A stretch of DNA of 64,000 nucleotides from an uncultured Hellea sp. (lineage in GTDB: Bacteria; Pseudomonadota; Alphaproteobacteria; Caulobacterales; Maricaulaceae), in assembly GCA_938007935.1 (NCBI GenBank), contig CALLMD010000009.1:111857-175856 (forward strand), read 5' to 3'. The position numbers and the translations under genes were made by a program. The notes beneath the pieces are model-generated. The model made no database searches. It was not told the origin of the DNA and saw only the letters and a list, made by a program, of their open reading frames with translations. Below, in pieces: positions 46,447-46,607 of the stretch; positions within the stretch are counted from its first letter, which is position 1; each line of letters begins with the position of its first letter.

Positions 46447-46539
46447 TTAACCGCCAATAACGATCATCCACATAGTCATGACAACCACGAATCCTGTCAT
46501 AACCATAGCCGTACTTATATCCATAACAAGCTGTTTCAT
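46447..46539 (-). CDS. 30-aa single-TM microprotein upstream of dnaE, candidate SidA-type SOS division inhibitor
   Basis: The minus-strand ORF runs ATG (46539) to TAA (46447), 30 codons plus stop, with GAGGAT 8 nt upstream of the ATG. The product starts MKQLVMDISTAM and continues as one hydrophobic helix (about residues 10-29) rich in Val, Met and Ile, with a single Trp, ending IVIGG. A LexA box overlaps the -10 region of its promoter. It ends 11 nt before the dnaE ATG. Caulobacter SidA is a 29-aa LexA-controlled inner-membrane peptide that blocks division through FtsW; as I remember it, it is also encoded next to dnaE. Size, topology, regulation and position fit; sequence homology was not checked. 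Confidence 0.72.
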   Translation of the reverse strand: MKQLVMDISTAMVMTGFVVVMTMWMIVIGG

Positions 46540-46567
46540 CTTATTTATCCTCAATTATAATTCATAT

Positions 46568-46607
46568 GTTCACTTTTTGTTCTATTATTGAAACCCTTCT
46601 ATGTCAA
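46568..46607 (-). promoter_or_regulatory. SOS promoter: TTGACA -35 with LexA box over the -10
   Basis: GTTC-ACTTTTT-GTTC on the plus strand (46568-46582; GAAC-N7-GAAC in the direction of transcription) is a perfect alphaproteobacterial LexA box. TTGACA (46607-46602) and TAGAAC (46584-46579) are 17 nt apart, the same element pair as in the lexA promoter. The box begins inside the -10 and ends 29 nt before the microprotein ATG. Confidence 0.82.

What the first reader, a model, noticed from the sequence alone, without database searches (positions are those of the whole stretch)
46447..46607. Unannotated 30-aa SOS-controlled membrane peptide upstream of dnaE, likely a SidA-type division checkpoint inhibitor
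Seen: a 30-codon ORF with a good Shine-Dalgarno, encoding one hydrophobic helix, sits 11 nt upstream of dnaE. Its promoter has TTGACA-N17-TAGAAC with a perfect GTTC-N7-GTTC LexA box over the -10, the same design as the lexA promoter in this window. Known: Caulobacter SidA is a 29-aa LexA-regulated inner-membrane peptide that stops division via FtsW; I believe it is also located by dnaE. Inferred: this is a diverged SidA analogue, too short for gene callers. It would also make the main replicative polymerase partly SOS-responsive if transcripts read through.
Basis: partly seen in the sequence, partly recalled or inferred. Interest (0 to 1): 0.85.

Follow-up and report, generated by a model that had tools for sequence, protein, structure and literature searches.

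The report
SOS division-stop peptide before dnaE
In a Hellea bacterium, a 30-residue peptide gene kept by selection sits behind a LexA-type operator directly in front of dnaE, the gene for the main DNA polymerase; it is likely a diverged SidA that would stop cell division after DNA damage, and look-alikes at the same place in other Alphaproteobacteria suggest that this checkpoint is likely older and wider than Caulobacter.

Summary
Window 46447-46539 (-) encodes MKQLVMDISTAMVMTGFVVVMTMWMIVIGG with a Shine-Dalgarno, TTGACA-N17-TAGAAC and a perfect LexA-type box (46568-46582), just ahead of dnaE. It is a conserved gene: 14 of 14 named Hellea/Algimonas-type loci have peptide and box; dN/dS 0.08-0.34. 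Of 57 dnaE leaders in the order, 49 carry a 25-31 aa hydrophobic ORF, including Caulobacteraceae genes that pass NCBI's SidA model, which lay before dnaE in 8 of 8 places checked. The window's peptide fails that model; the link rests on place, operator, size, profile-profile similarity (E 2.4e-7) and intermediates. Outside the order, 17 of 80 dnaE leaders show box plus hydrophobic ORF (resampled controls 0.06). So it is very likely a diverged SidA, predicted to block the divisome at FtsW after DNA damage; LexA binding, division block and FtsW contact are untested. No terminator was found before dnaE, so SOS induction of dnaE is likely but unproven. Corrections: dnaE probably starts at GTG 46423 (gap 23 nt, not 11); the lexA promoter has N16. 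New here: a widespread, apparently overlooked sidA-dnaE SOS unit.

The parts
46447..46539 (-). 30-codon gene (coding 46450-46539 plus stop), SidA-like peptide MKQLVMDISTAMVMTGFVVVMTMWMIVIGG, one predicted helix (residues 2-29)
   Evidence: conserved in relatives; dN/dS 0.08-0.34 in 9 of 12 pairs; single-sequence AlphaFold2 pLDDT 93.8
46568..46582 (-). LexA-type box GAACAAAAAGTGAAC (GTTC-N7-GTTC on the other strand), over the -10
   Evidence: perfect box at this place in 14 of 14 named loci
46579..46607 (-). promoter-like TTGACA-N17-TAGAAC
   Evidence: sequence; not listed by the scan, whose -10 rule it breaks
46548..46552 (-). Shine-Dalgarno GAGGA of the peptide gene
   Evidence: sequence
42971..46423 (-). 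dnaE, replicative DNA polymerase III alpha; likely start GTG 46423 (alternative ATG 46435), 23 nt after the peptide's stop
   Evidence: PF07733 over cut-off in this stretch; no terminator-like site in 46200-47000

Best explanation
The window holds a conserved 30-codon gene behind a LexA-type operator directly ahead of dnaE, and it likely encodes a diverged SidA, an SOS-induced peptide predicted to sit in the inner membrane that would halt cell division by holding the FtsW/FtsI/FtsN complex inactive. Shown here: reading frame, operator sequence, conservation, selection on the protein, the shared slot with Caulobacteraceae SidA genes, and no terminator-like site before dnaE. Inferred: LexA keeps the promoter low until damage leads to LexA cleavage; the peptide inserts as one helix, acts on FtsW and delays septation during repair; transcripts run on into dnaE, so that the replicative polymerase rises with the same signal; renewed LexA binding ends both.
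For: Peptide and perfect box before dnaE in 14 of 14 named loci; dN/dS 0.08-0.34 in 9 of 12 pairs. A 25-31 aa hydrophobic ORF before dnaE in 49 of 57 order loci. NCBI's SidA model matches the f3 peptides at that slot (65.6 and 59.7 bits); 8 of 8 checked model hits (of 42) lie before dnaE. Profile-profile: probability 93.4, E 2.4e-7, Met on Met. The f1 profile scores 6 of 7 f3 SidA peptides at p <= 0.0025 against composition-keeping shuffles. Function of SidA from PMC4211646 (passages). The window's genome has FtsW over the TIGR02614 cut-off, with F145 and A246.
Against: The window's peptide does not match NF033228. The f1-only profile finds the SidA place in only 1 of 42 SidA genomes at E <= 1 (G050, E 0.09). 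The SidA profile, made from seven close sequences, does not score the window's peptide above shuffles (p 0.74), and reaches p <= 0.05 in 8 of 25 f1 peptides. The f1 profile reaches p <= 0.05 in only 2 of 8 further order peptides (f3 genus g21, f4, f5). f2 lacks the peptide at dnaE (0 of 6). No expression, binding or phenotype data.
Confidence: 0.75

Rival explanations
1. An SOS-induced hydrophobic peptide of the DinQ or TisB kind that disturbs the membrane and slows growth in general, without a divisome target.
For: LexA-type box, short length, one hydrophobic helix. DinQ is an SOS-regulated toxic single-transmembrane peptide (PMC3567139, search listing).
Against: Same slot and operator as genes that pass NCBI's SidA model, and profile-profile similarity to them. 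No Rfam RNA other than the tRNA above its threshold in 46300-46900; I made no dedicated search for an antisense RNA.
Confidence: 0.1
2. SidA-like by descent, but acting on another divisome or envelope protein than FtsW.
For: The C-terminal half differs between families. DidA, another small Caulobacter inhibitor, acts through FtsN (PMC4211646, passages). Family f5 keeps the peptide although its FtsW has L or M at 145 in 6 of 6 genomes and T at 246 in 3 of 6.
Against: Simplest reading of homology to SidA; F145 and A246 are present in the window's FtsW.
Confidence: 0.08
3. A leader peptide whose translation controls dnaE in cis, with no role for the product.
For: Immediately upstream of dnaE with a 23-nt gap; 23-46 nt to the dnaE match in 14 named loci.
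Against: The amino-acid sequence is under purifying selection over the whole length; in other genomes the ORF ends up to about 300 nt before the dnaE match; SidA of the same slot is known to act as a protein (PMC4211646).
Confidence: 0.06
4. A chance ORF in a non-coding leader.
For: Very short; no match to NCBI's SidA model or to Pfam.
Against: Conservation and selection; box plus hydrophobic ORF far above resampled controls.
Confidence: 0.01

Closest known systems
SidA of Caulobacter (NCBIfam NF033228; CCNA_02004 in PMC10769358, passage)
   Same: 29 against 30 residues, one hydrophobic helix, LexA-type box, directly before dnaE in the 8 NF033228 places checked
   Different: Below the SidA model; 17% identity to the f3 peptides in the multiple alignment, rising through intermediates; one box in the window where f3 loci carry two or three perfect or near-perfect boxes
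DidA (Caulobacter)
   Same: Small damage-induced membrane inhibitor of the FtsW/I/N complex (PMC4211646, passages)
   Different: Induced by DriD, not LexA; not compared by sequence here
YneA (Bacillus subtilis) and SosA (Staphylococcus aureus)
   Same: SOS-induced division inhibitors; YneA acts on FtsW (PMC13396833 and PMC6851548, titles and abstract starts in search listings)
   Different: PMC4211646 calls yneA and sidA unrelated genes; not compared by sequence here
DinQ and TisB (Escherichia coli)
   Same: Short SOS-regulated membrane peptides (DinQ: PMC3567139, search listing; TisB recalled)
   Different: Membrane-acting toxins with antisense RNAs (agrA/agrB for DinQ in the listing; TisB recalled); no link to dnaE known to me

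Membership tests
SidA (NF033228 equivalog) | Match to NCBI's curated SidA model over its 35-bit cut-off | tested here: not met
   No match at E <= 10 for the peptide; in the whole genome two other weak places, none over the cut-off
SidA (works like / positional orthologue) | Gene directly before dnaE, same strand | tested here: met
   23 nt before dnaE here; 8 of 8 NF033228 places checked, of 42
SidA (works like / positional orthologue) | LexA-type box in the promoter | tested here: met
   GAACAAAAAGTGAAC 46582-46568. Sequence only; LexA binding not testable here
SidA (works like / positional orthologue) | About 29 residues with one membrane helix | tested here: met
   30 residues; one helix 2-29 in AlphaFold2 without alignment; hydropathy 2.23 over 15 residues. 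Membrane location is predicted only
SidA (works like / positional orthologue) | Sequence homology | tested here: inconclusive
   Profile-profile E 2.4e-7, probability 93.4 and forward shuffle test 6 of 7 for; reverse test p 0.74 for the window's peptide and genome-wide search 1 of 42 against
SidA (works like / positional orthologue) | Blocks division through FtsW | not testable with these tools
   Needs expression and interaction tests
Antisense-controlled SOS toxin peptides (DinQ/TisB kind) | Antisense RNA partner | tested here: inconclusive
   Rfam scan of 46300-46900, both strands: only the tRNA above threshold; no dedicated antisense search

The most novel reading that the evidence does not exclude
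One ancient LexA-controlled unit, sidA-dnaE, runs through much of the Alphaproteobacteria: a single SOS promoter both stops the divisome with a hidden 25-47 aa membrane peptide and raises the essential replicative polymerase, so that dnaE itself is an SOS gene in this class. Where the peptide is lost the operator can stay in front of dnaE (L042, L049), and FtsW drifts to residues that resist the inhibitor.
Probability: 0.4. Interest if true: 0.82.

Novelty: new variant of a known kind. Interest (0 to 1): 0.66.

Why it matters
The passages that I read treat SidA as a Caulobacter inhibitor. If the dnaE-leader peptides are SidA, the SOS division checkpoint of many Alphaproteobacteria becomes visible where NCBI's SidA model does not reach, and natural variation in the peptide and in FtsW becomes a ready set for asking how such peptides silence FtsW. 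An inhibitor of division and the replicative polymerase on one LexA promoter would be an unusual coupling, with an essential gene behind an SOS-repressed promoter.

Tried and rejected
Non-coding leader: rejected by conservation and dN/dS. Pfam: no family at E <= 10 for any of 5 peptides. Rfam: only the tRNA above threshold. Genome-wide recognition of SidA with the f1-only profile: failed, 1 of 42 at the right place, E 0.09. A 47-aa relative of family f14 found 5 proteins, 3 of them with a source's name, always 'hypothetical protein'. FtsW residue 145: association per genome (Fisher p 0.0018), lost when I collapsed lineages by hand (p 0.23), with f5 as counter-example; kept as a hint only. Class hits L118 and L122-L125 (5 of 13) have no dnaE beside them and look to me like the last helix of diacylglycerol kinase (name recalled, no family search): rejected as false positives. 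Boxes before dnaE without an ORF in L193-L195 (3 of 80) are close to the 1.1 expected and were not counted. The order-wide search with the 37-peptide profile (254 of 398 genomes at E <= 0.1) is partly circular, since the profile holds peptides of that order; I use it only for places. The listing of class dnaE matches was cut, so the 80 loci are those I picked, one or a few per family, from the rows shown for 282 genomes with a match; genomes already found were left out of the 80, and two loci were cut short by contig ends (L145, L163). The ORF test used ATG and GTG starts and a hydropathy threshold of my choice, and missed at least L045 and L054, whose peptides are seen. Controls are first-order Markov resamplings, 50 per locus. 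Literature: 8 searches of the held library; no listed title or abstract start tells of SidA outside Caulobacter or of sidA-dnaE linkage; most subscription papers are not held, the 2011 SidA paper among them. Supplements were not open.

Full report
What is in the window. On the minus strand, between a tRNA-Thr (46631-46705) and dnaE, lies TTGACA-N17-TAGAAC with a perfect LexA-type box over the -10 (46568-46582), a Shine-Dalgarno and a 30-codon ORF, 46539-46447. No terminator-like site was found in 46200-47000. dnaE most likely starts at GTG 46423: V-A-[K/R] is shared by the closest relatives (L002-L004, L012-L014), and in L013 a stop codon stands directly before it. In 14 named relatives 23-46 nt separate the peptide's stop from the start of the dnaE match; one of the 14 (L070) has a run of five T in the gap.

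Where it comes from. A scan of named genomes with the DnaE N-terminus gave 18 loci; 14 are close (65-83% identity): 12 titled Hellea, one uncultured Algimonas, one uncultured Caulobacterales bacterium; the other 4 are distant (Aminicenantes, Dehalococcoidia; 30-35%) and were dropped. The genome search calls the window's genome a member of the same genus as G007, whose dnaE contig has the length of that of Hellea balneolensis DSM 19091. NCBI taxonomy puts Hellea in Robiginitomaculaceae, Maricaulales; the search tool's grouping puts the window's family (f1) and the Caulobacter-like family (f3) in one order.

It is a gene. 14 of 14 close named loci carry the peptide (30 aa in 12, 31 and 35 aa in two) with a perfect box starting 41-83 nt before the ATG. 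Over 13 sequences of 30 codons, variable columns by codon position were 17, 10 and 27 of 29; window pairs gave dN/dS 0.08-0.34 in 9 of 12, 3 being saturated at synonymous sites; pooled pN/pS 0.345. AlphaFold2 on the single sequence gives one helix, residues 2-29, pLDDT 93.8; that is expected of such a sequence and says nothing on partners.

Order-wide. Of 61 genomes searched, 59 had a dnaE match; I examined 57 leaders (G025 and G030 had only broken matches and were not taken). A 25-31 aa hydrophobic ORF lies ahead of dnaE in 32 of 33 f1, 6 of 6 f3, 5 of 6 f4, 6 of 6 f5 and 0 of 6 f2 loci: 49 of 57 (three of these needed a second look because of my filters or orientation). Perfect boxes: 27 of 33 f1 after mending two misoriented loci, 6 of 6 f3, 5 of 6 f4, 5 of 5 f5 (a sixth, L047, was left out and has one), 1 of 6 f2. 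Six f1 loci (L019, L020, L022, L025, L026, L027) carry instead two one-mismatch boxes 25 nt apart. Resampled leaders gave at most 0.42 loci per family with a box, and 0.0 with box plus ORF.

Link to SidA. NCBIfam's equivalog model div_inhib_SidA matches two f3 peptides at 65.6 and 59.7 bits but not ours. Over 398 order genomes it passes its cut-off in 42, all of f3, and in one of 14 control genomes; Caulobacter vibrioides is among the controls that ring, but the answer does not say which one passes. In the 8 of 42 that I checked the hit lies before dnaE. Our family's profile aligns to that of seven SidA-type peptides Met on Met over 22 columns, probability 93.4, E 2.4e-7. The f1 profile scores 6 of 7 of these at p <= 0.0025 (the seventh p 0.05) against shuffles that keep N-terminal and core compositions apart, but reaches p <= 0.05 in only 2 of 8 further peptides of f3 genus g21, f4 and f5. 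Against: the f1 profile finds the SidA place in only 1 of 42 SidA genomes (E 0.09), and the SidA profile does not score the window's peptide above shuffles (p 0.74), though it reaches p <= 0.05 in 8 of 25 f1 peptides. Descent is therefore very likely, but rests on place, operator, size and intermediates together, not on sequence alone.

Beyond the order. A profile of 37 order peptides hit 17 of 385 class genomes at E <= 0.01, 4 of them in the order. Of the 13 outside, 8 lie ahead of dnaE with a LexA-type box within 150 nt before the hit (7 perfect, 1 with one mismatch); 5 have no dnaE beside them. Without use of peptide sequence, 17 of 80 dnaE leaders that I picked outside the order have a perfect box followed by a hydrophobic ORF of 26-48 codons, in 13 families; resampled leaders give 0.06. 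Of these 17, 12 score p <= 0.05 with the 37-peptide profile and 6 with the f1-only profile. A frequent trait is an acidic residue, mostly D, at the foot of the helix, and often a W further on (alignment). 63 of the 80 show no such unit by this test, so it is widespread, not universal.

dnaE as an SOS gene. Peptide and dnaE share a strand, with a short gap and no terminator-like site in the window. In L042 (f1) and L049 (f2), which lack the peptide, a perfect box stands straight before dnaE; two cases only. The passages I read say nothing on SOS control of dnaE; a word search for dnaE in five of the papers found none, and in PMC1839093 the places shown give dnaE (CC1926) and dnaE2 without it.

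FtsW. In PMC4211646 (passages) FtsW F145L and A246T suppress the lethality of both SidA and DidA overproduction, A31K that of SidA only. The numbering fits the Caulobacter-like FtsW here (A31, F145, A246). The window's FtsW has F at 31, F145 and A246. Over 85 genomes F145 occurs in 36 of 49 with the peptide and 14 of 36 without (Fisher p 0.0018); collapsed by hand to lineages, 12 of 18 and 14 of 31 (p 0.23). The 8 order genomes without the peptide (6 f2, G011, G059) all have L or M; but f5 keeps the peptide with L or M in 6 of 6 and T246 in 3, and one f4 genome (G043) has L. 'Without' means by the tests, which can miss diverged peptides. A hint for experiments, not evidence.

Mechanism. [quoted passage not shown] SidA and DidA are proposed to keep FtsW/I/N inactive. 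A lexA deletion filaments through constitutive sidA expression (PMC12700426, passages). I infer the same for the window's peptide, with dnaE raised by read-through. The original SidA paper is not held.

Noticed in passing
L042 (G011) and L049 (G057), dnaE leaders: No peptide, but a perfect LexA-type box directly before dnaE, as if dnaE itself were the controlled gene.
   Followed up: partly
L019, L020, L022, L025, L026, L027: Two one-mismatch boxes (GAAC-N7-GAA[T/A]) 25 nt apart replace the single perfect box before the peptide.
   Followed up: no
FtsW of G040, G044, G052 (family f5): Natural T at 246 and L or M at 145, residues that in Caulobacter bypass SidA or stand at a bypass site, yet the dnaE-leader peptide is kept.
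   Followed up: partly
window 46631-46705: A tRNA-Thr (GGT) sits directly before the promoter; none of the other 56 dnaE leaders scanned has a tRNA there.
   Followed up: no
window 47447-50982 and 51036-58292, minus strand: ORFs that look like a type I secretion pair (adaptor and ABC protein) beside a 2418-aa repeat-rich ORF (names from the sequence, no family search).
   Followed up: no
L118, L122-L125: The peptide profile also hits the last helix of proteins that look like diacylglycerol kinase (name recalled), a false-positive source for surveys.
   Followed up: yes
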